In this document: positions 34,834 to 50,000 of the stretch, piece by piece
Layout: the number at the start of each line of letters is the position of its first letter
Numbering within the stretch: the stretch's first letter is position 1
Source: Chitinophaga vietnamensis
GTDB lineage: Bacteria; Bacteroidota; Bacteroidia; Chitinophagales; Chitinophagaceae
Length of the DNA stretch: 64,000 nucleotides
Assembly (NCBI RefSeq): GCF_902167635.1
Contig: NZ_CABHMS010000002.1
Location: 1-64,000 of the forward strand
Direction of reading: 5' to 3'
Made by a program: the position numbers and the translations under genes
The notes under the pieces: model-generated
Seen by the model: the letters and a program-made list of their open reading frames with translations, nothing else
What the model was told of the DNA's origin: nothing
Database searches by the model: none

Positions 34834-35625
34834 TCATCCCGGGAAGCCTTGGGCAAGGCGCAGGTATTCGCCGGGAGTATGGTGTGTAAATGTTTTGAAA
34901 GCCCTTATGAGATGGCTTTGATCGGCATAGCCGTTTTCATAGGCGATGCCCGGCATATCTGAAAACCCTTGCTGGTTCAGCATTTGCAAGGCCGCCTGGA
35001 ACTGGCAGATGCGGCCGAATGTTTTGGGAGAGATGCCCACATGTTGTTCAAACTGGCGCTGAAGGGTGCGTTCAGTGATACAGAGTTCCTGCTGCACCTG
35101 CATCATAGAGAGCTGCCCTTTGTGTTGCAGGATTAAACGTGTAGCGTAGATGACCGTTTCATTCGTGATCAGCCGTTGACGCCCGGCCAGCCTGGCCACA
35201 TAATTACCAAGCAGCTCAAGCCGCTGTTGCTGACTGCCCGCATTGAGCAGCCGTTCCCGCAAACGCAGGTCCCTGGCGGCAGGGAGCAGGTCGATATCGA
35301 TGCATTGATCGGTCAGTTCTTTGGCATGTATGCCAAACAAGGCATATAACATATGCGGATAAACGAAGAAGGCGATCACGGTTAGATGCCTGGCGGTATG
35401 CAGCTGTATGGGTTCGAGGTTCTGTCCGTACAGCACCAGGTTATCCACCTTGCGCGGCCCGCCGATGATCATGCCCGGATCAGTGAGCTGAAAAGCAATG
35501 CTGGGAAAGCCTCTGGGGATCAGCGGGAGAACGGCTTCGTGGAAAGTGTGTTCGTTCTCCATCACGATGATCTCGCTTATGTAAGCCGCAATGGCCGCGG
35601 GAGGTGTGATGGACTGGACTTTCAT
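34834..35625 (-). CDS. AraC family transcriptional regulator
   Basis: A 263-residue regulator. The N-terminal sensing part begins MKVQSITPPAAIAAYISEI and contains VLPLIPRGFPSIAFQL and VIAFFVYPHMLYALFG, resembling the DUF6597-type domain. The C-terminal AraC HTH region has ERTLQRQFEQHVGISPKTFG and IAYENGYADQSHLIRAFKTF. Probably controls itself or the DHFR-family gene downstream. Confidence 0.9.
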   Translation of the reverse strand: MKVQSITPPAAIAAYISEIIVMENEHTFHEAVLPLIPRGFPSIAFQLTDPGMIIGGPRKVDNLVLYGQNLEPIQLHTARHLTVIAFFVYPHMLYALFGIHAKELTDQCIDIDLLPAARDLRLRERLLNAGSQQQRLELLGNYVARLAGRQRLITNETVIYATRLILQHKGQLSMMQVQQELCITERTLQRQFEQHVGISPKTFGRICQFQAALQMLNQQGFSDMPGIAYENGYADQSHLIRAFKTFTHHTPGEYLRLAQGFPG

Positions 35626-35675
35626 ATTGCACTTCTCTCTCTAAAATAACACATTCTTCTCAAATGCATCAACCC

Positions 35676-36821
35676 TCACGGCGCTCGCCAGAATGCTGCC
35701 GGGTTATTCGTCCGGAATGTTATATACGACGTTTTGGTAACCTTATTCGTGCTCACAGATTTCTCCAACGACTTTTTAAAATAATCCAGCGGGATCAGGC
35801 GGATGTAAGTGATCTGCTTGCCCGGCTTCGTGGTTTCGGTATCAAACCCGCTGTGGACGGAGCATTCCAGCATGTAGAGGTTCTTGGCCATATAGCTGTA
35901 GAGGTACCCTTCTTTGGTTTGAGAAGAGCGGCGATTCCAGTTGGCATCCGGGTTGAGGATGAGAGGACGGCCATCTATAATGCGGGCACGCACTTCCTCG
36001 ATGCCGAGTAGTTCTCCTTTTTCATTCATCACATAAGCGTCGAAGGTGGGATCGATCCATATCCATTTCTTCAGCCCGGAAACATATACCATATTGATCA
36101 CGTGGCAATCATTATCGATACCCAGACTGTCTTTCGGCAGGCAGGTCACATAGCGGGAGGGGATGCCCAGGGAGAGGTAGCATTCGTTCAGCGCCATGGC
36201 CAGGCCCCTGCAATTCAGGCCACGCTTGTCTTTGCGGCATACTTCGATCATGTTCATGGCATTCCGCACTTCAGGGTTGCCATGACTACCATCATGCGGT
36301 ACGAGGCCGTGGATCCAGTGCATGAGGTTCATGATCCTGGATACTTCGCTGCCCTGGCCGGCGATAGAATCGAGATGATACGTTTTGCGCAATGCGGTGA
36401 GATTGGAATCTTCGGCAGACTGATAAGTAAAGGCAGGCAGTTCCTGTTTTTCAGCGAGATTGTATTTGCCTGCTTTCTTCAGGGTAGCCAGCGTATCATA
36501 GGCGTAGACGCCTGTGAGCGCAGTATCTTTTCCTTTCAGCAAAATATTGAAAAGCACACAGGAGTTGGGCTTTACCGTAACAGTGATGGAGTCCTGGTCT
36601 GTATAAAAAGTCACCTGTTTACTTTTCTTCGGCACAGCGGTCGTATATACGTCTGGCTTGGTTTCCGGCGAGATGGTCCAGGCGTCTTTTCTCAATATGT
36701 CATTGTCGCGGATGCTGACAAGCAGGGAATCTGCTTTGATCAACGGCAATGCTTTTTGTTGTGCAGAAAGTGTGTTGGCGGCCAGCAGCAATGCGGCGTA
36801 CAGGAACGAGATTTTGGTCAT
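35676..36821 (-). CDS. Secreted transglutaminase-like (TGc) domain protein
   Basis: A 381-residue protein with a signal peptide (MTKISFLYAALLLAANTLSAQ) from the ATG at 36821; the frame is open to 36851. The TGc catalytic triad is visible in the second half: Cys in KRGLNCRGLAMAL, His in IDNDCHVINMVYV and Asp in IWIDPTFDAY. Such bacterial proteins act as periplasmic cysteine proteases or amidases rather than true transglutaminases. It appears monocistronic. No partner is evident. Confidence 0.88.
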   Translation of the reverse strand: MTKISFLYAALLLAANTLSAQQKALPLIKADSLLVSIRDNDILRKDAWTISPETKPDVYTTAVPKKSKQVTFYTDQDSITVTVKPNSCVLFNILLKGKDTALTGVYAYDTLATLKKAGKYNLAEKQELPAFTYQSAEDSNLTALRKTYHLDSIAGQGSEVSRIMNLMHWIHGLVPHDGSHGNPEVRNAMNMIEVCRKDKRGLNCRGLAMALNECYLSLGIPSRYVTCLPKDSLGIDNDCHVINMVYVSGLKKWIWIDPTFDAYVMNEKGELLGIEEVRARIIDGRPLILNPDANWNRRSSQTKEGYLYSYMAKNLYMLECSVHSGFDTETTKPGKQITYIRLIPLDYFKKSLEKSVSTNKVTKTSYITFRTNNPAAFWRAP

Positions 36822-36906
36822 GTGTGGCGGTTTAGAGATAAGCCATGTCAAGATACAAATACTGCCGCAAATTTGTTATGCTTCTTTGAGCTTGACAAAA
36901 AAATAA

Positions 36907-36929
36907 GGGCTTATCAGAACGATAAGCCC
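36907..36929 (-). terminator. Hairpin terminator on the minus strand
   Basis: GGGCTTATC (36907-36915) pairs with GATAAGCCC (36921-36929). On the minus strand it is followed by TTATTTTTTT, a good intrinsic terminator. It would stop leftward transcripts, for example read-through from the phosphatase gene, before the TGc gene promoter. Confidence 0.65.
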
Positions 36930-37125
36930 GGGTAGCAGAGATATTTTGACAGGGAAAAGAATACCCTTACAAATATCTGTATGATGAGCAAAACCAATGC
37001 AGTGAAAAATAGCTTTTGCTGTGGCGGTTTTCCTCCAGGCGGGAAAAATAACCTGGGAGAAAGTACATTTTCACTTTCCACAATCCCTTATCTCTCCCTA
37101 TCTTTATCTTACAAAATACTATCTG

Positions 37126-37254
37126 ATGAAACGCCCCATGGAGATAATAGCAGTGATACTGGTCACTATTTTACTGGCTGCTACTTGTCTACGTTGTAAC
37201 AGCGAGCGGAAAGACCGCGAAAAAGGACTGGCAGCCTACCATTCCGGAAAATGA
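37126..37254 (+). CDS. Possible small single-pass membrane protein (42 residues)
   Basis: A short frame beginning MKRPMEIIAVILVTILLAAT: a Lys/Arg start, about 18 hydrophobic residues, then a charged tail CNSERKDREKGLAAYHSGK. It has the shape of a small membrane or lipoprotein, though Thr before the Cys is a poor lipobox. Its stop codon abuts the stop of the convergent phosphatase gene (shared TGATCA). No homologue is recalled, and coding status is uncertain. The frame is open upstream to 37021, but that extension has no protein-like character. Confidence 0.4.
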   Translation: MKRPMEIIAVILVTILLAATCLRCNSERKDREKGLAAYHSGK

Positions 37255-38064
37255 TCAACGGGTATACTTAGCCCTTAATGTTTTCATTTCATCAGGACCG
37301 ATACCCAGTCCTTGTTGGAAGAAATTTTCCACAGAGCCATATGATTTCGCCAGGTTGTCGAACATGATGCGGAGATAGGCCGGTTTTAGGGCCATCGCAT
37401 CCTGCACCTCTGCTTCCGTCATGCCGGTGAGTTGTTGCAGACCTTTGAACATACGTGCGTTTATGGGTTGCAGGTATACGTTGCTGGCGGTGAAATCCGC
37501 TTCTATCACGTCTTGCGGCACTTGCAGTGCATACAGGAAAAGCGCGGAGGCCATGCCGGTCCGGTCTCTGCCGCCGGTGCAATGGTACATCACCGATTCA
37601 TTATCCGGCAGCACCAGTAATTGCTGGAACAGGGGCTTGTAGCGCTCGGCCAGCGGCGTAACGTTACCATAAAATTTTTCAAGGAAGTTGCCCGATTTGA
37701 TGGCGACTGCGATCTGCACAGGATTAGGGAGACTATCACTGCCTGCGGGGCACAGCGTGTATTTAGTGTCGGGCAGCAGGCGGTCCGGCGCGGCGGCTGC
37801 TTCTTTCGTTCCGCGGAAATCAAATACGGTATGTATATGTTTTTCTTCCAGGGTGCGGAGGTCCTGGTCGGTGAGGTGGCTCACTTCAGCAGAGCGGAAT
37901 ACTTTACCGGTGATCACTGTTTTGCCGCTACTGGTTTTGTAGCCGCCGGCGTCCCGGAAATTAACGGCGCCCTGCATGCGTACCAGTCGCACGGAACTGT
38001 CGGCCAATTGCGCAAAGGCCATGGCAGGCATCAGCAACAAAAGTGCGCAAGAAATTTTTTTCAT
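37255..38064 (-). CDS. Exported tyrosine phosphatase (DSP/PTP-like)
   Basis: A 269-residue protein with a signal peptide (MKKISCALLLLMPAMAFAQ). The phosphatase loop is HCTGGRDRTG at residues 161-170, with nucleophile Cys162 and Arg168. It opens with the VNFRDAGGY motif of this bacterial family (residues 34-42), and GKVFRSAEVSHLT is also typical. Export makes a periplasmic phosphoester or phosphoinositide-like substrate more likely than cytoplasmic phosphotyrosine. It appears monocistronic. Confidence 0.92.
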   Translation of the reverse strand: MKKISCALLLLMPAMAFAQLADSSVRLVRMQGAVNFRDAGGYKTSSGKTVITGKVFRSAEVSHLTDQDLRTLEEKHIHTVFDFRGTKEAAAAPDRLLPDTKYTLCPAGSDSLPNPVQIAVAIKSGNFLEKFYGNVTPLAERYKPLFQQLLVLPDNESVMYHCTGGRDRTGMASALFLYALQVPQDVIEADFTASNVYLQPINARMFKGLQQLTGMTEAEVQDAMALKPAYLRIMFDNLAKSYGSVENFFQQGLGIGPDEMKTLRAKYTR

Positions 38065-38080
38065 GGTCAGGTGTTTGCAG

Positions 38081-38088
38081 CAAATTTA
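38081..38088 (-). promoter_or_regulatory. -7 promoter element TAAATTTG of the phosphatase gene
   Basis: An exact TAnnTTTG match on the minus strand, 16 nt upstream of the ATG at 38064. Confidence 0.45.
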
Positions 38089-38174
38089 AAGATGCCTGCG
38101 CCGATGGCATGTTATGAAATTATTACCGCCACGCTGAAAACAAGAGCGCCGGTGCTGATGACACCGGCGCTGCG

Positions 38175-38756
38175 CTATGATTCAAAGAATTTACTTTTCC
38201 ATTCATTGAAAGCTGCCTGGTGTTTTGCCTGTGCAGGCGCTACGATCTCTTCTTCCACATCTTCCGGAGGCGTAAGCTGGAACTGCGTTTTCAGCCAGGC
38301 CTGGTAATCGTCCGCGTATTCGGAAGGCTCGTAATATTCGTCATCTTCATCTTTGAAGTAAGATACGCCGTCATGGTCTACGCCGGCTTCTACATCATAG
38401 GAGAGCACGCGGAGCAGGCCCGCGATATTTTCCGCCACTACATGCTCGCCGCCTTCATCACCGAAAACAACGATGGGCAGCTCGCTCAGCTCATTAGAAG
38501 AGCCGTTGAGCCAGATGGCATAAAAAGAACCGGAGCCGTTAGCCTGCGCAAAAGGCAGCAACTGTGCGAGGAATGCGGGATCGGCAGACCAGCCATTGGC
38601 GAGCCCCGATTTATCGTCATACATCAGGCCAAAGCCCTGTGCATAGTTTTCAAATCCTGCTTCTTCCTGAAAGGCCCACAGGCGGGCGAGTGCGTCGGGT
38701 ACAGGGTGTGTACCAAAGGTCTTCGAAAATTCCTGGATACTGGTCATAATTTTCAT
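38175..38756 (-). CDS. SMI1/KNR4 (SUKH)-like protein
   Basis: A 193-residue cytoplasmic protein. The central part resembles the SUKH fold (FYAIWLNGSSNELSELPIVV followed by FGDEGGEHVVAENIAGLLR). The C-terminal third is very acidic (FKDEDDEYYEPSEYADDY and PPEDVEEEI). SUKH proteins include many toxin-immunity proteins, but isolated family members of unknown role are common. It is about 1 kb from the peptide exporter, so an immunity role is conceivable but unsupported. A second ATG at 38747 is an alternative start. Confidence 0.7.
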   Translation of the reverse strand: MKIMTSIQEFSKTFGTHPVPDALARLWAFQEEAGFENYAQGFGLMYDDKSGLANGWSADPAFLAQLLPFAQANGSGSFYAIWLNGSSNELSELPIVVFGDEGGEHVVAENIAGLLRVLSYDVEAGVDHDGVSYFKDEDDEYYEPSEYADDYQAWLKTQFQLTPPEDVEEEIVAPAQAKHQAAFNEWKSKFFES

Positions 38757-38814
38757 TCAATTGATGGGTAAACAAAAACGGGCCGAAGATAAATGATTTC
38801 TTCAACCCGCCTTG

Positions 38815-39222
38815 TTATTTTTTGAATGAAGCCAATATTTCGAGATAATGCGGATTATACATGATGCCAAGGATATTGCCGAAGGGATCTTTTACGGCTG
38901 CCGTTACAAAGCCATGGCCGCGTTCTTTGACAGGCTCCTGTACGCTGGCGCCCAATCCGGTAAGGCGTTCCAGCGTGGCCGGCAGGTCATCTACATGCCA
39001 ATACAGGATGGCGCCGGCGGGCTGTCCTACGGGATGCTGCGCATAGCGGCTGTCGATAATACCCAGTTCCTGCTGGTAATCGCCGACGCGAAATTCTGCA
39101 TAACCCGGAACCTCAAAATAAGGAGCGATGCCCAGCACTTCGCTATACCATTGTTTGGCGGCTTCGTGATCGGCTGCAAAGAAACTGATGGTGGCGATGC
39201 CGCGTAAAGTAGTGTTTGTCAT
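38815..39222 (-). CDS. VOC (glyoxalase/bleomycin-resistance-like) protein
   Basis: A 135-residue single-module VOC protein starting at 39222 (MTNTTLRGIATISFF); an upstream extension to 39267 is not credible. It shows AKQWYSEVLGIAPYF, then ILYWHVDDLPATLERL and the terminal KDPFGNILGIMYNP with a likely metal-binding or structural residue pattern. Substrate unknown. It is divergent from a GNAT gene across 85 bp. Confidence 0.9.
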   Translation of the reverse strand: MTNTTLRGIATISFFAADHEAAKQWYSEVLGIAPYFEVPGYAEFRVGDYQQELGIIDSRYAQHPVGQPAGAILYWHVDDLPATLERLTGLGASVQEPVKERGHGFVTAAVKDPFGNILGIMYNPHYLEILASFKK

Positions 39223-39307
39223 GATGAGTTTTTTTGTTAGTACAAAATTCCACGCGGCATGTGACAACCCTATGTCAGCAATAAAAAAGAATTTTTAACT
39301 TGATGGC

Positions 39308-39826
39308 ATGGAATATATTATCTCTACGCTTACAGAAGATATTTCAACAGTTGCCGCTTTATCTGAGCTGATCATTGAAACAGTGGCTCATGGCGGCTCC
39401 GTGAGCTTCATGCACCCGCTGGCGCCGGAAGCGGCAACGGCGTTCTGGAGCAATGCGCTGGCTGCGGCCAGCCGTGGCGAAAGAGTGATACTGGGCGCTT
39501 TTGATCAACAGTTGCTCGTAGGCACCGTTACCTTGTTGCTGGATTGCCCGCCCAATCAGCCACACCGGGCAGAGATCGCGAAAATGATGACCCGGGTGAG
39601 CCACCGCGGCCGCGGTATTGCGCGGTCGCTGTTACAGGCCGCAGAAAAGATCGCCGTGGAAAAAGGCCGTACGCTGCTTACGCTCGATACTGCGGAAGAG
39701 GAAGGCGCCGCCTTTCTGTACGACAGCATGCAGTATCAACGTGCCGGCGTAATCCCCGGCTTTGCGCTGAAGCCCCATGGCGGCCTCACGGGCACGATCC
39801 TCTATTTTAAAAATATCGGGAAATGA
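39308..39826 (+). CDS. GNAT family N-acetyltransferase
   Basis: A 172-residue acetyltransferase. The acetyl-CoA-binding loop is RVSHRGRGIARSLLQAA at about residues 98-114, followed by GRTLLTLDTAEEEGAAFLYD. No substrate can be assigned. Its stop codon is directly adjacent to the stop of the convergent exporter gene (TGATCA at 39824-39829), leaving no room for a terminator. Confidence 0.9.
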   Translation: MEYIISTLTEDISTVAALSELIIETVAHGGSVSFMHPLAPEAATAFWSNALAAASRGERVILGAFDQQLLVGTVTLLLDCPPNQPHRAEIAKMMTRVSHRGRGIARSLLQAAEKIAVEKGRTLLTLDTAEEEGAAFLYDSMQYQRAGVIPGFALKPHGGLTGTILYFKNIGK

Positions 39827-42013
39827 TCAGGTGCTCATCATGCCCTGGTGATGGCTCCATAATTTTGCATATACCCTGTCTTTCATCATCAGCTGGTGAT
39901 GCGTGCCTTCTTCGGCCAGGGCGCCATTTTGCAACACCACGATCTTGTCGGCATTCACCACGGTGCTGAGGCGGTGTGCGATCACGATCACCGTTTTGCC
40001 GGCATGCCGCAGTTGCTGCATCACTTGCTGTACATGGTGGTCGGATACCGGATCGAGCGATGAAGTGGCTTCGTCCATGATCAATATTTGCGGATCACGA
40101 TAGAGCGCCCGCGCGATGGCCAGCCTTTGCCGCTGGCCGCCGGAGAGGTTCACGCCATGCTCGCCAAGCATCGTATGGAAGCCGTCGGGCAATTGCTCAA
40201 TGAAGCCGCTAATGTCCAGCCAGCGCGTGATCTGAAGGATACGCTGCATATCCGGCTCAAATTCTCCCACGGCAATATTGGAGGCTACGCTGCCGTGGAA
40301 AAGGTCTATCTGTTGTGGTACTACGCCTATCCAGCGGCGCAGACTTTCAGGATGGATGTATTTGATATCGGTTTGTCCGATGGTGATGCTGCCTTCCCGC
40401 AAAGGATAAATGTGCTGTAAGAGCGCCATCAGCGTGGATTTGCCGGAACCGCTCTCGCCTACTACCGCGGTGATGCTTCCCCGCTTCACCTGCATGCTGA
40501 ACTGCCGGAACACTTCTTTCCGGGTGCCATAGCTGAAAGATATATTGTTGAAAATGATATCGCCATCATGATCGGCGGGCAGTTCTATTTTATTGGCGGT
40601 ATCTTCCTGTTGCAGGTCCATGATCTCGAAGAGGCGGTCTGCCGCGATGAGCGCATCCTGTATGCTTTTGTTGGCGCCGATCAGGCTGGCGGCCGGTCCT
40701 GTGAAATAGTTGATCAGCGCATAAAACGATAGCAGCGCACCTGCGCTCAACTGTTGATCAAGCACATAAGAGGCGCCGGTCCACAAGATGATGATCACAA
40801 AAAGATTGGTAACGATATTCGTGAAGCTGCCGATGTACAGGTTGCTCACGGAAGAATGGTAAGTGGTTTTCAACACTTGTATGAAACGGTTTTCCGTTTT
40901 CATATTCGCATATTCCTCCAGTGCAAAGCGTTTGATCGTGGAAACGGTATTCAGCGATTCTACCAGCTGGCTGCCCAGTTCCGCGTTTTCTTCCATCAAT
41001 CTCCGTTGATATTTTTTATTCACCTGGTTACTGATCGCATAAATGATCAGGAAGAGAGGAATGATGGCGAGCATGATCAGGGAGAGCTTCCAGTTGTAGC
41101 TGAACATCAGCGTGAAAGAGAACAGCACGATGAAACTGTTCACCACCAGCGATATGGACACATCGTTGATGAAGGCGCGGATCTTGATGGCGTCGTTGAT
41201 GCGCGATGTGATTTCGCCTACGCGCATGGTATCGAAGAACTGCTGCGGCAGCGTCAACAGATGTTTATAGTAGCCGAGTATCAGCCGGGCATCCAGCTGC
41301 TGGCCTGTTTTGAGGATGAAGATGCTTTTCAGGTTACCGATGAACAACTGTAACACCAATATTACCAGCATCACAATACTGAGCAGGTTGAGCAGGTTCC
41401 TGTTACCGCCTACCAATACATTGTCTACAATTTTTTGTACATAGATAGAAGTGGACAGGCCCAGTACCGTATAGATCATGGCCCCGAAAATAGCTTGTAT
41501 CACCACGCCGCGGTGCGGGCGCATGAGATACCAGAAACGTTGCAGGTGCGATACTTTGTTGTTGCCCGACTGGAACTGGTCTCCGGGCAACAGCAATACG
41601 AGGATGTTGGTCCATATGGCTTTGAAGGCCTCATGTGTGAGACGGTGATACTGGCCATCTGCAGGGTCCATTACCACTACGTGTTTGGCTGTTACCTGGT
41701 ATATCACCACAAAATGTTGCAGCATGCCGTTGATGACCACGTGGGCGATGGTGGGCTTGGGAATGCCTGCCAGCGCGTCGAAAGGGCCTTTTACGCCTTT
41801 CGCCTGGAAGCCCAGTTGCTGCGCGGCGGTGATCAGGCCCATTACGCTGGTACCTTTTTTATCGGTGCCAGCATATTGCCGGATCAGGGCCAGCGGCAAT
41901 TGCAGCTTGTGCCAAGTGGCTACAGAGGCCAGACTTGCAGCACCGCAATCGGTGATATCATGTTGTTTGATCCTGGCCCTGCGTTTGAGCCGGACGGAAT
42001 GTTGAGCGCTCAT
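39827..42013 (-). CDS. Peptidase-containing ABC exporter (C39 peptidase, membrane domain, ATPase)
   Basis: A 728-residue bacteriocin-type exporter that cleaves double-glycine leaders and exports the core peptide. The N-terminal C39 peptidase has Gln17 (oxyanion), Cys23 in DITDCGAAS, His100 in LQHFVVIY and Asp116 in VMDPADG, so it is predicted active. Six transmembrane helices follow (about 160-440). The ATPase has Walker A GESGSGKST, signature LSGGQRQ and Walker B ILIMDEATSS. It lies 16 bp after the HlyD-like gene and faces two double-glycine peptide genes. Confidence 0.96.
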   Translation of the reverse strand: MSAQHSVRLKRRARIKQHDITDCGAASLASVATWHKLQLPLALIRQYAGTDKKGTSVMGLITAAQQLGFQAKGVKGPFDALAGIPKPTIAHVVINGMLQHFVVIYQVTAKHVVVMDPADGQYHRLTHEAFKAIWTNILVLLLPGDQFQSGNNKVSHLQRFWYLMRPHRGVVIQAIFGAMIYTVLGLSTSIYVQKIVDNVLVGGNRNLLNLLSIVMLVILVLQLFIGNLKSIFILKTGQQLDARLILGYYKHLLTLPQQFFDTMRVGEITSRINDAIKIRAFINDVSISLVVNSFIVLFSFTLMFSYNWKLSLIMLAIIPLFLIIYAISNQVNKKYQRRLMEENAELGSQLVESLNTVSTIKRFALEEYANMKTENRFIQVLKTTYHSSVSNLYIGSFTNIVTNLFVIIILWTGASYVLDQQLSAGALLSFYALINYFTGPAASLIGANKSIQDALIAADRLFEIMDLQQEDTANKIELPADHDGDIIFNNISFSYGTRKEVFRQFSMQVKRGSITAVVGESGSGKSTLMALLQHIYPLREGSITIGQTDIKYIHPESLRRWIGVVPQQIDLFHGSVASNIAVGEFEPDMQRILQITRWLDISGFIEQLPDGFHTMLGEHGVNLSGGQRQRLAIARALYRDPQILIMDEATSSLDPVSDHHVQQVMQQLRHAGKTVIVIAHRLSTVVNADKIVVLQNGALAEEGTHHQLMMKDRVYAKLWSHHQGMMST

Positions 42014-42029
42014 GTTGCTGGATAAAAGA

Positions 42030-43220
42030 TCAGATGTTGTTTGCTGCCAGACTATTATCAGATGCGGCTTTTCTCCTGTCGGGATTGATCCAGTCGTCGG
42101 TTTTGTCGTACAACAGCTGGAACAGGCTGCGCCTCGTGAGGATGAACCTGGCCTGCAAGGTCATGCCTTTTTTCAAAGCGGCGCTCACACCGTTGGTGGT
42201 ACTGAGCGTGGTGCCGGCAAACCCGCACCGCACCTTGAATGCGGGTTGGTTGTTGATCAGCACGAAATCATTATCGATAGATTGTATCACGCCTTTTGCC
42301 ATGCCCCATTCGTTGTAATTGAATGCATCTACCTGGAACCTTGCAGGCATTCCTTTTTTGAGGTAGCCGATATCGCGGGGAGAAACATAGCACTCTGCAA
42401 TGATGTTGGAATCAGGGGAGATGATGCCCAGCAGTTCGCCGGGTTGCAGGTAACCGCCGGCATATTTCCCGGTGAACTGCTGCAAGGTGCCGCTCACAGG
42501 GGCTTTTACCAGGTTCCATTCTTTCTCTTTGGAGAGCTGCCGGTTATCGGCCTGCAGGCGGTTGTCTTCCAAACGAAGCTGATTCAGCTCCGCTGCCCAG
42601 GCGCTCCGCTGTTGCTGCACGGCGGAGTGATAGGCTGCCTTACTTTTTTCATATTCAAATTTGCGGTCGAGATACTCTTTTTTAGCAATCACTTTTTCAT
42701 TGAAGAGCTTTTCATACATCTCCAGGTCTATACGTTGTTTTTCCACGGTGGCGGCCAGTTCCTGCAGGGAGGCGCGGAAGCGCGCATATTGCTGCTGGTA
42801 CAAAAGGGATTGCAGCCTGCTGCCGCCGGCTACCAATGTTTCGAGGTCATGTATCTGGGCTTCCCGTTGCGATAGCTCATATTGGTTTTGTGTGAGTTTG
42901 CTGTTGCTGATATCTTCCTGCAGGCGAAGTAATACCTGTCCTTTCTGTACGCTGGCGCCATCGGCCACCAGCACCTGTTCTATGGTGCCGGCTACCATGC
43001 TGCGCAATTCCGTTTTTTCCGTAACAGGCCGCACAATCCCGCTGGCAGCGATAGACACATCCACCTTGATCAGGGGTAGCGCGGCTAATGTACACAGGAT
43101 AACTAACAATACGGTTACATAGATGACCTGTGTGTGACTGCGTACCCTGGGTAGCCAGGTAAACACAGAACGCTGCATAATAGCGGCGGGGAAAAGGATG
43201 GGTTTCATGAACGGGATCAA
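42030..43220 (-). CDS. HlyD family periplasmic adaptor of the peptide exporter
   Basis: A 396-residue membrane-fusion protein. One transmembrane helix lies near residues 30-50 (VIYVTVLLVILCTLAALPL), followed by a barrel-sandwich/lipoyl half motif (EQVLVADGASVQKGQVLLRL), a long helical hairpin (about 105-220, with QKQ/KEYLDRKFEYEKSKAAYHS) and a second half motif (VKAPVSGTLQQFTGKYAGGY). It joins the ABC exporter to an outer-membrane channel, not encoded nearby. ATG at 43208 is an alternative start. First gene of the exporter operon. Confidence 0.94.
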   Translation of the reverse strand: MIPFMKPILFPAAIMQRSVFTWLPRVRSHTQVIYVTVLLVILCTLAALPLIKVDVSIAASGIVRPVTEKTELRSMVAGTIEQVLVADGASVQKGQVLLRLQEDISNSKLTQNQYELSQREAQIHDLETLVAGGSRLQSLLYQQQYARFRASLQELAATVEKQRIDLEMYEKLFNEKVIAKKEYLDRKFEYEKSKAAYHSAVQQQRSAWAAELNQLRLEDNRLQADNRQLSKEKEWNLVKAPVSGTLQQFTGKYAGGYLQPGELLGIISPDSNIIAECYVSPRDIGYLKKGMPARFQVDAFNYNEWGMAKGVIQSIDNDFVLINNQPAFKVRCGFAGTTLSTTNGVSAALKKGMTLQARFILTRRSLFQLLYDKTDDWINPDRRKAASDNSLAANNI

Positions 43221-43509
43221 ATGGTCTCTTCCAATATAGCTATTTAACGCTCAATAGTGCGTGTTCAGGCGCATAAAGAACAAATTGAACGGCGATTTTC
43301 AGAATGAATAAAAATGAACAACGAATGTGATCGTAATCCGTTGCTGATGGGTTAAATTTGGTAGCGGCAGTAATGTACAGCGCGCGTCATGTGAAGGCGG
43401 CAATCTTCTGCACAAGCATCGTTAAACAACCTTCCCCCAACATTTTGGAGCCATTTTATTTATGATACAGGTATCATGACCAGTTTTTTTATACTTTAAA
43501 TTTAACACC
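43221..43509. other. Divergent promoter region of the peptide-secretion locus
   Basis: A 289-bp gap between the leftward exporter operon and the rightward peptide genes. It has no gene. Notable elements are the palindrome at 43462-43477 and an AT-rich TATACTTTAAATTTAAC stretch just before the first peptide ATG, containing TAAATTTA, one mismatch from the -7 consensus. Confidence 0.6.
43462..43477. promoter_or_regulatory. 16-bp palindrome, candidate operator of peptide genes
   Basis: ATGATACAGGTATCAT: two perfect 7-bp half-sites around AG, 33 bp upstream of the first double-glycine peptide gene. It could bind a dimeric regulator; none is encoded next to it. Confidence 0.45.
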
Positions 43510-43761
43510 ATGAAAACAAAGTATCAACTTGAACCTTTGTCTGACAAGGAATTGCTCAGCACAAACGGCGGCGGTTTACTGGATGGTTTCTTCGGATCTG
43601 CTGTTACCGGTGGCGACAGCAGTACGGTGGACTATACAGGCTATACCACCGGAATGGGATTCACCTATTTTGCATTCGGGAACGGCCACGCTACTTATAT
43701 GGCAGCCAGTGGCGCCGGAATGTACAATTTCCTCAGTAACCTGAGATTCCCGACCTCCTGA
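43510..43761 (+). CDS. Double-glycine-leader secreted peptide, 62-residue core
   Basis: An 83-residue precursor. The leader MKTKYQLEPLSDKELLSTNGG fits the class II bacteriocin/ComC leader consensus (LSxxELxxxxGG), with predicted cleavage after Gly21. The core begins GLLDGFFGSAVTGG and is rich in Gly, Thr, Tyr and Phe, with no Cys. It lies divergent from a C39-peptidase exporter gene, the enzyme that recognises such leaders. Role is inferred: bacteriocin, signalling or other secreted peptide. I recognise no homologue. Confidence 0.8.
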   Translation: MKTKYQLEPLSDKELLSTNGGGLLDGFFGSAVTGGDSSTVDYTGYTTGMGFTYFAFGNGHATYMAASGAGMYNFLSNLRFPTS

Positions 43762-43811
43762 GGAATCCTGTACTTTTTTATCCGCATTTCGTCACACAAA
43801 AAAACTTTAAC

Positions 43812-44105
43812 ATGAAAAACTTTGAACAACTGGAACAATTTACAGAACTGAATCTGGAAGAAGCAATGGATATTAACGGCGGCGACCTGCTGGGCCTGAA
43901 TGGCCTGGGAACTGGTCTTGGCGTTGGTCTTGCTGCACTTGGCGGCGGTCTTGGCACTGGTCTTGCCGGCGTGGGAACCGGCTTTGGCGCCGGTCTGCTG
44001 AACCTCGGCGCTGGTCTTACCCTGGTAGGCGCTGGTCTCGGCATTGGCCTGGCCAATATCGGCATCGCCTTCAACCACTTCTTCAGTGGGGTTTTACACA
44101 AATAA
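43812..44105 (+). CDS. Double-glycine-leader peptide with glycine-zipper-like core
   Basis: A 97-residue precursor. The leader ends LNLEEAMDINGG (cleavage after Gly24 predicted), matching the same consensus as the peptide 50 bp upstream. The 73-residue core contains 24 Gly spaced among Leu, Ala and Val (GLGTGLGVGLAALGGG), with internal repeats of about 14-15 residues, and ends FNHFFSGVLHK. This GxG-rich, Cys-free sequence suggests a membrane-inserting or self-assembling peptide, like glycine-zipper bacteriocins. Export by the C39 ABC protein is inferred. Confidence 0.82.
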   Translation: MKNFEQLEQFTELNLEEAMDINGGDLLGLNGLGTGLGVGLAALGGGLGTGLAGVGTGFGAGLLNLGAGLTLVGAGLGIGLANIGIAFNHFFSGVLHK

Positions 44106-44134
44106 TCATCCAAATTGTACTAACCAAAGTGCTG

Positions 44135-44164
44135 AAAAACCGCCTTGCACGGGGCGGTTTTTTT
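44135..44164 (+). terminator. Rho-independent terminator of the peptide operon
   Basis: The stem AAACCGCC/GGCGGTTT (44137-44144 with 44153-44160) is followed by a T-run to 44164. It closes the two-peptide transcript. Confidence 0.85.
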
Positions 44165-44169
44165 GTGCG

Positions 44170-45438
44170 CTATAATTCGCTGATCTTCCTCATCAGTAAT
44201 TTCTTCTCCACCTCAGAACGGGTAAGCGCGATGGCCTGGCGGTAGCAATCCGCCGCAGTGGCCGGCGCCAGCGTAGCATAGATATCGCCGCGCAAAGCAT
44301 GATATAAATAATTTTTCTCCCATTCTTTTTTATAAGGAGAGATGGCTATTTCTTCAAGGGTACGGGTGGGGCCATACACCTTGAAGATCACTGTTAAACG
44401 GTGCAGCATCACAATGGCGTTGGGATGTATCTGTACCAGCATGTTGTAGTACGACAGGATATGTTGCCAGTTGGTATCGGCGAAAGTGGCTGCCATACAG
44501 TGTTCATACGCGATGGCGGCTTCCACATGGTAAGTGCTGATCACCTCACCGAAAGCGGCCTTGTTGAGATAACGGTTCCCCTCTGCGATCATCTGCCCGT
44601 CCCACAGGCTACGGTCCTGGTCCGACAGCAACACAATATTGCCATCTGCATCGATGCGGCTGTTGATACGTGCTGCATGAAAATACATGAGCGCCAGTGC
44701 GGCGAATGTTTGCGGCAACGCCGTAGCGGCATTTTCCGTGAGCAGCTTGCAGAGGTACATGGCCTGGTCCAGCAGGTCTTTGCGGATGAGCGTATCGGTA
44801 TGGGTGGCGTTGTAGCCTTCATTGAAGAGGAGGTAGATACTGCGCAGCACCGCGTCCATGCGCCCGCTGAGCTGCGCTGGCGGCGGAAATGCGGGCTTTA
44901 TCCGCTTCTCCCTGAAAAAAATTTTTGTCCGGTATAATCGTTTGGAGATGGTATCTTCTGCCGTAACAAACGCTTTGGCGATCTCGCTGGTAGAGAACCC
45001 GCAAAGGGTTTTCAGGATCAGGGTGATCTGGTTTTCCGGCGCTATCTCCGGATGGCAGCAGGCAAACATCATGCGGAGCAGGTCGTCCTGTATTTCATCA
45101 TCCCGCCAGAGTTGATCGATAATGGTGGTCATGGTGTATTCCGATTGAAGCAATGCTCTCTCGGGCGCATTAAAATCCACAAGCGTGGAGAATTTATTTC
45201 TTCTTAATACATCGATCGCTTTATTTTTCGCGACACGGAACAACCAGGCGGAAGGGTTGTCTGGCACGCCTTTCAGCGACCATGCCTTTACGGCGGCAAT
45301 AAAAGTATCCTGCACCACATCTTCCGAGATGTCGAGATTTTCGGTACCGAAAATTTTTGTCAACAGGGCTACCATCTTTCCTGCTTCATGGCGGAAAAGA
45401 TGTTCGGTAAGCCGGTTAATATCGAATGATGCGCTCAA
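44170..45438 (-). CDS. ECF42-type RNA polymerase sigma factor (second module)
   Basis: A 422-residue sigma factor, distant paralogue of the one at 5243-6487. Region 2 has DISEDVVQDTFIAAVKAW, region 4 has CGFSTSEIAKAFVTAEDTIS, and the C-terminal extension has LLFNEGYNATHTDTLIRKDL and a TPR-like tail. It is last in the leftward operon DinB, VOC, DGPF, sigma. Its target regulon is unknown; ECF42 factors often control their own operon. Confidence 0.92.
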   Translation of the reverse strand: MSASFDINRLTEHLFRHEAGKMVALLTKIFGTENLDISEDVVQDTFIAAVKAWSLKGVPDNPSAWLFRVAKNKAIDVLRRNKFSTLVDFNAPERALLQSEYTMTTIIDQLWRDDEIQDDLLRMMFACCHPEIAPENQITLILKTLCGFSTSEIAKAFVTAEDTISKRLYRTKIFFREKRIKPAFPPPAQLSGRMDAVLRSIYLLFNEGYNATHTDTLIRKDLLDQAMYLCKLLTENAATALPQTFAALALMYFHAARINSRIDADGNIVLLSDQDRSLWDGQMIAEGNRYLNKAAFGEVISTYHVEAAIAYEHCMAATFADTNWQHILSYYNMLVQIHPNAIVMLHRLTVIFKVYGPTRTLEEIAISPYKKEWEKNYLYHALRGDIYATLAPATAADCYRQAIALTRSEVEKKLLMRKISEL

Positions 45439-45511
45439 AAGTGGTTTGTACGTCTACCGTAAAATTACAAAGCGGATGATGAATGCCCGTTTATCCATCA
45501 TCCGCTGTTAT

Positions 45512-45868
45512 TTAGATGTGGACCATATTATTGATCTCACGAACTTCCACCGTACCGTTGATATCGAGGATAGGACAGCCTTTGGAAAGCTCTACTGCTT
45601 CGTCGAGGCTATCGGCTTTGCAGATGAGATAACCGGCCACCATTTCCTTTCCTTCGATGAAAGGCCCGTCTGTAACAACTCTGCCATTGCCATTCACCAC
45701 TTTGCCTCCGGTTACGAGTGGCTGTGCGCCGCCAAACCGTCCCTGGTCGTTGAGATCGGCCATCCATTTGGTCCATTTCTCCATGTGCGCCTGCCATTTC
45801 TCCGGCGATTTCAGTTCCGCTTGCCGGTCTATATCGCCGCCACAGAATAAAAAAAGATATGCTGTCAT
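45512..45868 (-). CDS. DGPF/YCII domain protein (partner of second ECF42 factor)
   Basis: A 118-residue YCII-family protein from the ATG at 45868 (MTAYLFLFCGG); the frame is open to 45910. The DGPF motif is RVVTDGPFIEGKEMVAGYLI. It is the first partner gene of the downstream sigma gene (73-bp gap) and parallels the pair at 5.2-6.8 kb. Confidence 0.9.
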   Translation of the reverse strand: MTAYLFLFCGGDIDRQAELKSPEKWQAHMEKWTKWMADLNDQGRFGGAQPLVTGGKVVNGNGRVVTDGPFIEGKEMVAGYLICKADSLDEAVELSKGCPILDINGTVEVREINNMVHI

Positions 45869-45887
45869 ATGTGCCCGTTTTGTAAAA

Positions 45888-46280
45888 TTATTTGCGCGCG
45901 TGTAAGGCAATGCGGTTACCTTCCGTGTCGATGAAAAATGCCATGTAGCCGATATCTTCCGAGATCTGCGTTTTGGGCATCACCACTTTGCCGCCGGCTG
46001 CTTCGATCTTGTCTACCACAGTCTGCAAGTGCGGGTTGGCATTCAGGTACAACACAGGACCATCTTTGCCAGGTATGTGCATCTGTCCTTTTACCAGTGC
46101 GCCGGAAACCTTGCCTGCGCCGGGTTCCCAGGGGAACATCGTCATTTCCATGCCCATCGTCTCCTGTGTTTGCATCTTGATGTTGAAGATGTGTTCATAG
46201 AATTGCTTTGCTCTTTTGGTATCTTTTACTGGTATTTCAAACCAGTTGAGCGAATTGGTTTTTTCACTGATTTTTTCCAT
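45888..46280 (-). CDS. VOC family protein
   Basis: A 130-residue VOC-fold protein: SLNWFEIPVKDTKRAKQFYE at the start, LYLNANPHLQTVVDKIEAAG in the middle and AFFIDTEGNRIALHA at the end. VOC proteins are frequent members of ECF42/DGPF operons. It lies 19 bp upstream of the DGPF gene in the same operon. Confidence 0.9.
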   Translation of the reverse strand: MEKISEKTNSLNWFEIPVKDTKRAKQFYEHIFNIKMQTQETMGMEMTMFPWEPGAGKVSGALVKGQMHIPGKDGPVLYLNANPHLQTVVDKIEAAGGKVVMPKTQISEDIGYMAFFIDTEGNRIALHARK

Positions 46281-46331
46281 AACACGGTGTTTTAAAGTTA
46301 TTGAATATTATCCAACATTCATTTGCCTGGA

Positions 46332-46814
46332 TCAATAGGCCATAGCCCTTTCGGTATGATATTTTTTGAGAAAGGCCATCTGGCCGATATCATAGCTTTC
46401 GTGCTGGGCGAAGAAGGCGAGAGTGCCGCCGGTGCTCATTTCACCGATAGGGCTGGGCAGGGGGGAAGTGCTGCTGAGATGGTCTTCCGATACATCTTCC
46501 AGCGCCTGCAGCAGCAGTTCGCTGGCCTTTTTCCATTCCTGTTTCACTTCGGAAAGCGAAGGCTGGGTATCGGCGGGGTTGTAAGGATTGTCTTTGCCGA
46601 AGCGATCCTTATATGGATTGGTTACCGGCTGGCCTAGCAAGGCTGCGGCATTATATCTTGCCCACACGGTATGTGCGGCAATCCAGATGAGCGGGTTGTT
46701 ATGGCCGCTGATGCGCTCCTGCGCCTGTTCTTCGCTCACGCCGTCCAGCGCGTTAACGAAAAGCCTCTCGTTCATCCTGAACATTAATGAGGAATGATAA
46801 GCTGAATTTTTCAT
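46332..46814 (-). CDS. DinB superfamily protein
   Basis: A 160-residue four-helix-bundle protein of the DinB/YfiT type. The ATG at 46814 (MKNSAYHSSLMFRMNERL) is chosen over the open frame to 46952, whose translation has no domain character. Histidine candidates for metal binding are in NPLIWIAAHTVWARY and AFFAQHESYDIGQMAFLKKY. Possibly a thiol-dependent transferase; substrate unknown. First gene of the second ECF42 operon. Confidence 0.85.
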   Translation of the reverse strand: MKNSAYHSSLMFRMNERLFVNALDGVSEEQAQERISGHNNPLIWIAAHTVWARYNAAALLGQPVTNPYKDRFGKDNPYNPADTQPSLSEVKQEWKKASELLLQALEDVSEDHLSSTSPLPSPIGEMSTGGTLAFFAQHESYDIGQMAFLKKYHTERAMAY

Positions 46815-46940
46815 CGTATTACTGGTTTGTTCAGGATAATGACGAAGCATTTTGCCCGATTTGGACAGAGATGAAAAAAAATCAAAAAAAATTTTCAACG
46901 GCTTGAGGCTACGGGGCAAGAATACAGCGAAGACCGGCCA

Positions 46941-46995
46941 ATCAATCATCAAATAACCCCATCAAATCAATAAATCCGTCAATCAAAAAATCCGC
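46941..46995. repeat. 16-bp AAATCAANAAATCCGT repeat units
   Basis: One exact unit at 46964-46979 and a diverged one at 46980-46995, in the 274-bp gap before the S41 peptidase gene. No long inverted partner arm is seen here. Confidence 0.7.
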
Positions 46996-47088
46996 AAATC
47001 CGGATTCGTCCATACACATTATCGACCGTCAAACACAATCAAAAAAGCGGCATATCTTTTTTTATTTAGATTTAATAAAATCTGAACT

Positions 47089-50000
47089 ATGCGGAGAAAA
47101 ATAATGTTAGCCCTCATCGGCTGTGTGGCAGGCGGGCGGCTGACGGCACAAGTAAATGCCGGTTTGTTCCGGTTCCCCGATGTATCCCGTACACAAATTG
47201 TTTTTGCCTATGCCAATGATATCTGGATCGTTCCCAAAACAGGCGGAGAGGCAGTGAGGATCGTTTCACCTCCAGGCGTGGAGAGCTTTCCCAAGTTCTC
47301 ACCGGATGGTAACAGGATCGCCTATACGGCAAATTATGATGGTAACAGCGACGTATATGTATTACCGGTAAGCGGCGGCGTACCACTGCGCCTCACGGAA
47401 TACGGCGGCCCTGACCGCGTGATCGACTGGACGCCCGACGGCAAACAGGTGCTCTTCTCTTCCGGCCGCGAAAGCACCAAGGCGCGCTTCAACCAGTTCT
47501 ATACCATTCCCGCCACCGGCGGCGCAGCGGTGAAACTGCCGCTGGCCTATGCCGAATTTGGCTCCTGGTCGCCCGATGGATCCAAAATGGCCGTCACCAC
47601 CCGCACACAGAGCTTTGCCAACTGGAAACGCTACCGCGGCGGCATGAAAGCATTCATCCACATCATGGACCTGGAAAAGAAACAATCTGAAAATATCTCT
47701 ACCAACAACGATGCGGGCGATGAATTCCCGATGTGGTACAAAGATTATATCTACTTTTTGTCGGACCGCGGCGCCGAAGAACGTATGAACATCTGGCGGT
47801 ATAATACCACTACCAAAGCTGCGGAACAGCTCACCCATTATAAAGATTACGATATCCATTTCCCCTCTATGGGACCGGAAGACATTGTATACGAAGCTGG
47901 CGGCAAATTATACCTGCTGTCGCTCGCCACGCAACAGTCAACGGAAGTGAAAGTGAGCGTCGCCACTGATTTTGCGACGATGAAGCCACGAAGCATGCGG
48001 GTATCTAAATTTATACAATCCGCTTCGCTGAGCCCTGATGGCAAGCGCGCAGTGATCAGCGCACGTGGCGATGTGTTTTCTGTACCGGCCAACTATGGCT
48101 ATGTAAAAGACCTTACACAAAGCAGCGGCGCCGCTGAACGTTACCCGGTATGGTCGCCCGACGGCAAACAGATTGCATGGTGGAGCGATCGCTCCGGCGA
48201 ATATGAACTGTGGATCGCCACCGCCGGCAAAGAAAAAGAAGCCAAACAGATCACGCACTACGGCCCTGGCTTCCGCTATAAAGTGTATTGGTCGCCCGAT
48301 AGCCGGCAAGTCGCCTTCATTGATCAGATGAGCCGTTACCAGGTGCTGGACATCGCCAGCGGCAAAACCACCGTGATCGATACCGCCCTGCGTTATTCAC
48401 CGGATGCCTATGAGGGCGTTACCTTCAGCTGGACGCCCGACAGCCGCTGGCTTACCTATAGCCGCGACCTGGATAACAACCACGAAGCCGTATTCCTCTA
48501 CGATACCCGCGATCATCGGCGCTACCAGGTTACCAGCGGCTTCTATGACTGTCGCCGTCCCATCTTCGATGAATCCGGTAAATATCTTTATGTGATCACC
48601 AACCAGATCTTCAATCCTACTTACAGCACTATCGATAATACTTTCGTATATGAGAAGAGCGCGGTAATAGGCGTGATCGGTCTTACCAAAGAAACACCCT
48701 CACTGCTGGCTACCCGTAATGATGCGGTGAATGTAAAAGAAGAAGTGAAAGAGAAAGAAGTAAAAGAGAAGAAGACCACACCTGAAAAGAATAGCACTGC
48801 CATCGATCTGGACAACATGGAATCCCGCCTCATCCTGCTGCCCGTAGCACCTGACCGCTACAGGCGTTTGGGCGCAGTAAAAGGCAAGATATTATTTCTT
48901 ACACTGTCGCAGGATGATGAAGATGGCAATGCTAAATCTGTTTTGAAATATTACGATATTGCCACGCAACAAACGAAAACGATCATCAGTAACCCCGGCC
49001 AGTACGAGCTTTCCGCCGATGGTGAAAAAATTCTTGTTACCGGCGGCCCTTATGGCGTGATCGATGTAGCCTCCAATCAAAAGATAGATACCGTGATGCG
49101 GATCGATGATATGGAGATGGTGGTGAACCCCGCCGAGCAATGGCGGCAGATGTTCAACGATGCCTGGCGCTTTGAGCGCGACTTCTTCTACGATCCGCAC
49201 ATGCATGGCGTGGACTGGAACGGCGTAAAAGAAAAATACCTGCGCCTTGTAGATGGCGTGCGTACACGGGAAGAGCTCAACTTCGTGATCAATGAGATGA
49301 TAGGAGAGATCAGTTCCTCCCATACTTACAACATCGGCGGCGACCTCGAAACCGGCCGCAGGGAAAATGTAGGTTACCTCGGTGTGGACTATGAAGCGGA
49401 TGGCCAGTACTACAAAATTAAACACATCGTCCGCAGCGCGCCCTGGGATGCGGAAGCGCGCAATCCTTTAGATGAACCCGGCGTCAGGATCAAAGAAGGG
49501 GATTACCTTCTCGCGGTGAACGGTGTGCCGCTTACCACTGCCACAGAGCCTTACAGCGCTTTCCAGCTGCTGGCCGACAAAACAGTAGAACTCACTTTCA
49601 ACCATCATCCTTCCTGGGATGGCGCACAAACTACCATCGTCAGAACACTCGCCAGCGAATACCGCCTGCGGCATCTTGCCTGGATAGAGAGCAACCGCAA
49701 ACGCATTGCAGCAGCCACTAACAACCAGGTGGGATATATCTATGTGCCCAGCACCGGCGTCGACGGGCAGAATGAATTGATCCGTCAGTTCAATGCGCAA
49801 TGGGACAAGGCAGGTCTCATCATCGACGAGCGTTTCAACAATGGCGGGCAGGTGCCTGACCGTTTCATAGAGCTGCTGAACCGTCACCCCTTGGCCTATT
49901 GGGCCAATCGTCCTGGTCTGCCATCACAAGGCCCGGCCTATGCGCACTTTGGCCCCAAAGTGATGCTGATCAATGGCTGGAGCGGTTCCGGCGGCGATGC

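What the first reader, a model, noticed from the sequence alone, without database searches (positions are those of the whole stretch)
39827..44164. Undescribed two-peptide secretion locus with C39-peptidase exporter
Two adjacent small genes (43510-43761 and 43812-44105) encode precursors whose leaders end in NGG and match the double-glycine consensus. They face a HlyD adaptor and an ABC exporter with an intact C39 triad (Cys23, His100, Asp116). The set is self-contained: precursor, processing, export, terminator. The core peptides differ greatly and I recall no family for either. Known: C39 exporters cleave such leaders. Inferred: these are a two-component bacteriocin-like or signalling system. 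No modification enzyme and no obvious immunity gene is present, which is unusual.
Basis: partly seen in the sequence, partly recalled or inferred. Interest (0 to 1): 0.88.

Follow-up and report, generated by a model that had tools for sequence, protein, structure and literature searches.

The report
Two-peptide bacteriocin-like export locus in Chitinophaga
A soil-type bacterium carries two small glycine-rich peptide genes beside a pump that should cut and export them, most likely as a two-part antibacterial weapon laid out like a known bacterial killing system, but with no recognisable protection gene beside it.

Summary
Two precursors (43510-43761, 43812-44105) with double-glycine leaders diverge from a HlyD adaptor and a C39-peptidase ABC exporter with Cys23/His100/Asp116 intact. 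The adaptor-exporter pair recurs across Bacteroidota. In 43 sampled Chitinophagaceae loci, 39 have at least one leader-bearing small ORF within 5 kb (one looks spurious), with very variable cores. A same-genus relative has the same divergent layout with similar leaders but different cores. The exact pair occurs, adjacent and in the same order, in 4 of 4 genomes with a strict P0001-type gene; in 2 of those 4 it lies away from any exporter. That weakens 'self-contained' and strengthens 'two-component'. The two cores are probably distant members of one family. No linked immunity gene or modifying enzyme was recognised; bacteroidetocins are a precedent for lacking immunity. Best reading: a two-peptide bacteriocin working like Caulobacter Cdz or class IIb bacteriocins, exported with a TolC partner encoded elsewhere. 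Processing and export are implied by sequence; killing is inferred. Surface-matrix and signalling roles stay open. New variant of a known kind, moderate interest.

The parts
43510..43761 (+). Precursor 1 (P0001, 83 aa): 21-residue leader, 62-residue core (19% Gly, no Cys); C-terminal GxGxxxFLxxLxxPT stretch resembling other precursors
43812..44105 (+). Precursor 2 (P0002, 97 aa): 24-residue leader, 73-residue hydrophobic core (33% Gly, no Cys) with an 11-residue repeat
42030..43208 (-). HlyD-family adaptor (ORF opens at 43220 with TTG; likelier start ATG 43208)
39827..42013 (-). PCAT-type ABC exporter with N-terminal C39 peptidase (Cys23, His100, Asp116)
43209..43509 (.). About 300-bp intergenic region between divergent operons, presumed to hold both promoters (not shown)
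   Evidence: similar spacing in L238
44134..44163 (.). Strong hairpin with T run, probable terminator between precursor 2 and the converging sigma-factor gene

Best explanation
The locus encodes a two-peptide, unmodified bacteriocin-like system of Chitinophaga. Both precursors are recognised by their leaders. The C39 domain of the ABC protein cuts after Gly-Gly (after residue 21 in P0001 and 24 in P0002), and the cores leave through the ABC-HlyD pair and a TolC-like channel encoded elsewhere (steps inferred from family knowledge and leader conservation). The glycine-rich hydrophobic P0002 core, an 11-residue repeat predicted at low confidence to form two long helices, would insert into or oligomerise on membranes. 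P0001, probably from the same peptide family, is its partner (inferred from their constant linkage). The likely outcome is damage to the envelope of competing bacteria, either diffusing as class IIb bacteriocins do or held at the surface as in Caulobacter Cdz. Self-protection is not encoded beside the peptides as far as could be seen.
For: Leader-bearing ORFs cluster at this exporter. In 43 Chitinophagaceae loci a rule written after looking at the sequences found 63 within 5 kb and 3 further out, and 7 hits among 3632 shuffled ORFs; the near zone is also the longer one. A profile tested on 71 loci not used to train it gave 49 hits within 4 kb and 2 further out, 9.35 against 0.33 per 100 kb; 2 of 9611 shuffled ORFs passed the same threshold. 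The exporter's best PDB relatives are 8vp3 and 4ry2 (E 3.6e-162 and 3.8e-162). The pair is adjacent and in order in 4 of 4 genomes with a strict P0001-type gene. dN is below dS for both precursors. Cargo changes while layout stays: in L238 the adaptor is 86% identical and the layout is the same, leaders match P0002's in 20 and 17 of 24 residues, and the cores differ by eye. P0002-type cores show the 11-residue repeat in 5 of 5 (p 0.0002-0.0006). Among 15 aligned members, weak hits at E up to 1: ComC 7, Bacteriocin_IIc 5 (best 5.7e-5), Lactococcin 5. Divergent exporter and two-peptide operons without a TolC gene match the published Cdz layout.
Against: No assay exists. No immunity gene is shared around the 4 pair loci: apart from the peptides, the exporter genes and frames overlapping them, nothing matched. 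Neither window precursor hits any Pfam family at E up to 1. P0001 has no GxxxGxxxG motif, and GxxxG in P0002 is not enriched beyond its glycine content (10 against 7.3 expected, p 0.12). In 2 of 4 genomes the pair is far from an exporter. At 8 bits the leader profile found nothing near the exporter in 38 of 71 loci, and three same-genus exporters have no leader ORF nearby (L051-L053). The 'strict' cut decides the 4 of 4: a weaker full-length match (G085, 8.1e-13) lies in a four-precursor array without a P0002-type partner. Structure models are of low confidence (mean pLDDT 59.1 and 56.1). The five P0002 types are homologues, not independent, and lag 11 was picked after looking.
Confidence: 0.55

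Rival explanations
1. Surface or matrix peptides: the glycine-rich cores are exported to self-assemble into an extracellular or outer-membrane layer (adhesion, gliding, biofilm) and kill nothing.
For: Very hydrophobic repetitive P0002 core (GRAVY 1.09, 33% Gly). Gly spacing peaks at 162-164 degrees per residue, which fits two stripes on a helix or a twisted strand. No immunity gene found. In G437 the pair lies beside ORFs of 1461 and 1662 aa, the larger visibly repetitive.
Against: Cores differ between close relatives with the same layout; leaders and exporter resemble bacteriocin export; structural genes would be expected in more than 3 of 79 genomes of the genus.
Confidence: 0.2
2. Secreted signalling peptides, like ComC-type pheromones.
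For: Leader-only similarity of P0002 to ComC (NF033214, 16.1 bits against a cut-off of 50) and weak hits of 7 of 15 aligned members to Pfam ComC; variable cores also fit pherotypes; a helix-turn-helix gene follows the exporter in 12 of 43 loci, not in the window.
Against: Cores of 62-73 residues are long for pheromones (recalled). None of 12 neighbouring genes scanned is a sensor kinase or response regulator by Pfam; the AraC-type regulator at 34834-35625 is about 4 kb beyond the exporter. The ComC match is confined to the leader.
Confidence: 0.13
3. Remnant or orphan cargo: the pair is a degenerating or selfish cassette and the exporter mainly serves other peptides.
For: Patchy distribution (3 of 79 genus genomes); same-genus exporters L051-L053 with no leader ORF nearby (the single L050 hit looks spurious).
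Against: Open frames and dN below dS for both genes; the precursor-family profile found only these two genes in this genome at E up to 0.001.
Confidence: 0.12

Closest known systems
Cdz system of Caulobacter crescentus (CdzABCDI; PMC5380434: abstract, five sections and passages read)
   Same: Divergent operons, type I exporter without its own TolC gene, two adjacent small precursors (86 and 84 aa there), glycine-rich hydrophobic core in at least one; one to three toxins per system in its relatives
   Different: No CdzI-like immunity gene found here; P0001 lacks a glycine zipper; the pair can sit away from the exporter; Bacteroidota host. Sequences of CdzA-D were not compared, so it is open whether the two are homologous; contact killing untested
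Class IIb two-peptide bacteriocins / Pfam Bacteriocin_IIc (features recalled; paper listing only)
   Same: Double-glycine leaders, C39 exporter, two peptides side by side, GxxxG in one hydrophobic core
   Different: Bacteriocin_IIc is not reached by either precursor; no immunity gene found; Gram-negative host with HlyD adaptor
Bacteroidetocins (PMC6671954, passages read)
   Same: Bacteroidota, double-glycine peptidase transporter, double-glycine leader, no immunity gene
   Different: Those have at least two Cys, a five-TM protein and mostly a thiol oxidoreductase; the two cores here have no Cys, and no such genes were recognised beside them
PCAT1 (PDB 4ry2, 8vp3, named there 'ABC-type bacteriocin transporter'; the name PCAT1 is recalled)
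   Same: Alignment over residues 10-724 with the C39 residues aligned
   Different: Here paired with a HlyD adaptor; different cargo

Membership tests
Peptidase-containing ABC transporters (C39) | N-terminal C39 domain with Cys/His/Asp, ABC membrane and ATPase domains | tested here: met
Cdz-like systems (criteria of PMC5380434) | Precursors 60-151 residues with leader ending G[G/A/S] | tested here: met
   83 and 97 aa, both NGG
Cdz-like systems | Type I secretion genes within 10 kb | tested here: met
   met in the window and C. polysaccharea; not in the other 2 of the 4 pair loci
Cdz-like systems | One or two glycine zippers not interrupted by Pro or charge | tested here: inconclusive
   P0002: GxxxGxxxG at residues 31 and 53, uninterrupted, but no more than its composition predicts (2 against 2.2); P0001: none
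[quoted passage not shown]
   P0001 ends NLRFPTS, P0002 ends SGVLHK; read by eye
Cdz-like systems | Small transmembrane immunity protein in the peptide operon (CdzI in Caulobacter) | tested here: not met
   a hairpin follows P0002 at once; no further small ORF shared around the 4 pairs at E up to 0.001. The paper says immunity genes were hard to find in its relatives
Cdz-like systems | Sequence similarity to CdzC/CdzD | not tested
   CdzC/D sequences not fetched
Cdz-like systems | Contact-dependent killing | not testable with these tools
   needs the bench
Pfam Bacteriocin_IIc (PF10439) | Score over the curated cut-off | tested here: not met
   0 families at E up to 1 for both precursors; weak hits for 5 of 15 aligned members
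Bacteroidetocins | At least two Cys, TM protein, mostly thiol oxidoreductase | tested here: not met
   no Cys in either core; no thiol oxidoreductase among 12 neighbouring genes scanned

The most novel reading that the evidence does not exclude
A contact-dependent two-peptide toxin module of Bacteroidota: a glycine-repeat peptide and its partner always travel as a pair, plug into a widely conserved adaptor-exporter hub that may be encoded elsewhere in the genome, vary by swapping cores behind a similar leader, and need no dedicated immunity protein.
Probability: 0.25. Interest if true: 0.7.

Novelty: new variant of a known kind. Interest (0 to 1): 0.45.

Why it matters
If right, environmental Bacteroidota hold a large, little annotated stock of unmodified peptide weapons that share one exporter type. 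Pairs that can sit away from the exporter, and that lack a linked immunity gene, would raise a testable question about how producers survive their own peptides. Variable cores behind similar leaders give a simple search rule for more of them.

Tried and rejected
Looked for a conserved immunity gene: ORFs of 25-350 aa within 5 kb of the four pairs compared with each other at E up to 0.001; only the peptides, the exporter genes (window and L090) and frames overlapping these matched. A helix-turn-helix gene family occurs in 14 of 43 exporter loci (12 of them just after the exporter) and a membrane-protein family in 7 of 43; neither cluster includes the window. Pfam on 12 neighbours of the cassette (34834-50322) showed ordinary families (GNAT, sigma factor, glyoxalases, YCII, DinB, phosphatase, transglutaminase-like, AraC-type regulator, tricorn-type protease); two gave none. 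Antisense ORFs over P0002 (43695-44078, 43778-44113) were set aside because orthology and dN/dS support the + frame. Glycine-zipper enrichment as such was rejected for both cores; the 11-residue repeat (lag 7 is also raised) is what stands out in P0002. Fourier analysis could not separate helix from twisted strand for the Gly spacing. Structure models, from alignments of 9 sequences, were too weak for a fold search, which was not run. PDB search with P0002 gave only weak hits (best E 0.12). No plasmid match for P0002. A genome-contig scan with P0002 alone found nothing. The sigma-factor flank is conserved in relatives but the other side is not, so no clean empty site was shown. One P0001-type (G437) was not clear of shuffles against the family core profile (20 of 2000), and against a P0002-only core profile two of four P0001 types were not clear (100 and 5 of 2000), so the shared family is a moderate claim. 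The P0001 profile (A5) was trained on three of the four pair loci (window, C. polysaccharea, G102); only G437 is an independent find. Contexts were fetched for 43 of the 46 adaptor places; G388, G075 and G377 were left out. Nine loci from the training genomes or a close sister were dropped before the count.
Full report
OBSERVATION. The four ORFs named in the finding exist at the stated places. On the minus strand lie a 728-aa ABC exporter with a C39 peptidase domain (39827-42013) and a HlyD-family adaptor (to 43208 or 43220); on the plus strand, about 300 bp away, lie precursor 1 (43510-43761) and precursor 2 (43812-44105). The domains are over Pfam's curated cut-offs. Cys23, His100 and Asp116 are kept in 43 of 43 aligned exporters, and the best solved relatives are 8vp3 and 4ry2. 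A strong hairpin follows precursor 2. Neither precursor matches Pfam at E up to 1. In NCBIfam, precursor 2 matches ComC weakly through its leader only, and precursor 1 gives one weak, apparently irrelevant hit.

ORGANISM. The named genome with the most similar adaptor is Chitinophaga polysaccharea (82%), and the genome search places the records of C. tropicalis and C. polysaccharea in the window's own genus (names by matching contig lengths and coordinates). The window is therefore from a Chitinophaga; the species was not identified.

THE EXPORTER IS COMMON, ITS CARGO VARIES. Relatives of the adaptor at E up to 1e-20 occur in 45 of 394 sampled genomes of the family. A scan of named genomes with an adaptor alignment confirmed 218 of 242 stretches and kept the best 80. 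By their titles 79 of those 80 are Bacteroidota (Chitinophaga, Pedobacter, Algoriphagus, Flagellimonas and others); the other, L107, is titled Beijerinckiaceae but is by length and match position the contig L055, which the genome search places in the window's family. In 43 fetched contexts (of 46 places) an exporter gene lies next to the adaptor in all 43, cut by the contig end in some. A rule for double-glycine leaders, written after looking at the sequences, finds at least one small ORF within 5 kb in 39 of 43 loci (38 if a spurious-looking one in L050 is dropped). The counts per locus are 0 (4 loci), 1 (22), 2 (13), 3 (2), 4 (1) and 5 (1). There were 63 such ORFs within 5 kb and 3 further out, the near zone being the longer; 7 of 3632 shuffled ORFs passed. 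A profile built without the window's precursors, tested on 71 loci after nine training or sister loci were dropped, gave 49 hits near the exporter in 33 loci and 2 far at 8 bits or more; 2 of 9611 shuffled ORFs reached that score. At that score 38 of 71 loci had none nearby, so the profile covers only part of the cargo.

THE PAIR. A strict P0001-type gene (E below 1e-20) was found in 3 of 79 genomes of the genus and 2 of 394 of the family, four genomes in all: the window, C. polysaccharea (L090), one inferred to be C. japonensis (G437, L229), and one inferred to be Pseudoflavitalea sp. G-6-1-2 (G102, L013). Three of these four trained the profile; only G437 is an independent find. Ten more family genomes match more weakly (best 8.1e-13, G085), several only in the leader. 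In all four strict cases a P0002-type gene follows directly, in the same order and direction. In L090 the pair reads towards the adaptor instead of away from it. In L229 and L013 there is no exporter beside the pair; both genomes hold adaptor and exporter elsewhere, next to other leader-bearing ORFs. So the pair behaves as a unit separable from the exporter. In another same-genus genome (L238), whose adaptor is 86% identical, the same divergent layout carries two precursors whose leaders match P0002's in 20 and 17 of 24 residues and whose cores differ by eye. A P0002-like gene also occurs without a strict P0001-type (L063, 53% identical).

ARE THE TWO PEPTIDES RELATED? They align with 13 other precursors, with a shared leader and a similar C-terminal GxGxxxFLxxL stretch. 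A core-only profile from ten other members scores P0001 at 15.7 bits and P0002 at 14.0, with 0 of 2000 shuffles as high for each; but the G437 P0001-type was not clear (20 of 2000), and against a P0002-only profile results were mixed (0, 100, 5 and 0 of 2000). I take common origin as likely, not proven.

CORE CHARACTER. The P0002 core (73 residues) is 33% glycine and strongly hydrophobic, with an 11-residue repeat in it and in four relatives (p 0.0002-0.0006); the lag was picked after looking and the five are homologues. GxxxG motifs are present but no more than composition predicts. Gly spacing fits two stripes on a helix or a twisted strand. AlphaFold gives helices 26-51 and 58-95 for P0002 and 23-33 and 51-77 for P0001, at low confidence. 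The P0001 core (62 residues) shows no repeat. Neither core has cysteine.

NO LINKED HELPERS RECOGNISED. Pfam on 12 neighbours (34834-50322) found no peptide-modifying enzyme. By contrast, three of the other four C39 exporters of the same genome lie beside maturation enzymes: L016 and L018 beside proteins with the TIGR03891 domain of thiopeptide-type bacteriocin biosynthesis (L018 also with a class I lanthipeptide leader hit), and L017 beside an ATP-grasp maturase. No small ORF other than the peptides, and apart from the exporter genes and overlapping frames, is shared by the pair loci. TolC-family (OEP) genes are plentiful elsewhere in the genome (60 domain matches).

MECHANISM. Most likely the C39 domain cuts both leaders and the cores leave through the ABC-adaptor pair and an unlinked TolC channel; the two cores then act together on membranes of competitors. 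Shown by sequence: leaders, intact catalytic residues, linkage, dN below dS. Inferred: cleavage, export, joint action, target. Confidence in the bacteriocin reading is 0.55, with matrix (0.2), signal (0.13) and remnant (0.12) as rivals.

AGAINST WHAT IS KNOWN. The layout is that of Caulobacter Cdz (abstract, five sections and passages of PMC5380434 read), whose authors reported one to three toxins per system and difficulty in finding immunity genes in relatives; the word Bacteroidetes occurs in that text only in a reference. One feature of Cdz, the immunity gene, was tested and not found, and sequence homology was not tested, so I do not file the locus as a Cdz member; it is laid out like one and may work like one. 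Bacteroidetocins (passages of PMC6671954) show that a Bacteroidota peptide toxin can lack immunity. A preview article on IIBacFinder (passages of PMC12648078) says class II bacteriocin precursors are predicted in Bacteroidota, so the kind is known. In the listings (8 to 20 rows each) I saw no title on this Chitinophaga pair; the library is incomplete and most of those papers were not opened.

Noticed in passing
L068 8851-9336 and six other loci (L069, L070, L072, L076, L085, L087): A membrane protein of 156-171 aa lies upstream of the adaptor in 7 of 43 loci; the one tested (L068) is Rce1/CPBP-like (PF02517, 36.0 bits, cut-off 22.4). It is a candidate immunity or processing gene there; the cluster does not include the window.
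   Followed up: partly
L069, L072, L076, L078, L085-L089: Another precursor family with double-glycine leaders in 9 of 43 loci, several members ending like YQxSLPxNLKK.
   Followed up: no
Own genome: L016, L017, L018, L019: Four further C39 exporters: two beside TIGR03891 proteins (one with a class I lanthipeptide leader hit), one beside a grasp-with-spasm-like ATP-grasp enzyme (221.9 bits, cut-off 230), one beside a small GG ORF with no NCBIfam family.
   Followed up: partly
L090 13359-14811: Downstream of the C. polysaccharea exporter: a third leader-bearing ORF, then a DUF2975 membrane protein and a Cro/C1-type regulator.
   Followed up: partly
L229 10201-19817: Next to the exporter-less pair lie two very large ORFs (1461 and 1662 aa), the larger visibly repetitive, perhaps surface proteins.
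   Followed up: no
L067, L074: Leader-bearing precursors whose cores begin like IPLLIIGA and contain a GC, lipoprotein-like by eye; L074 has five leader-bearing ORFs, four of this sort.
   Followed up: no
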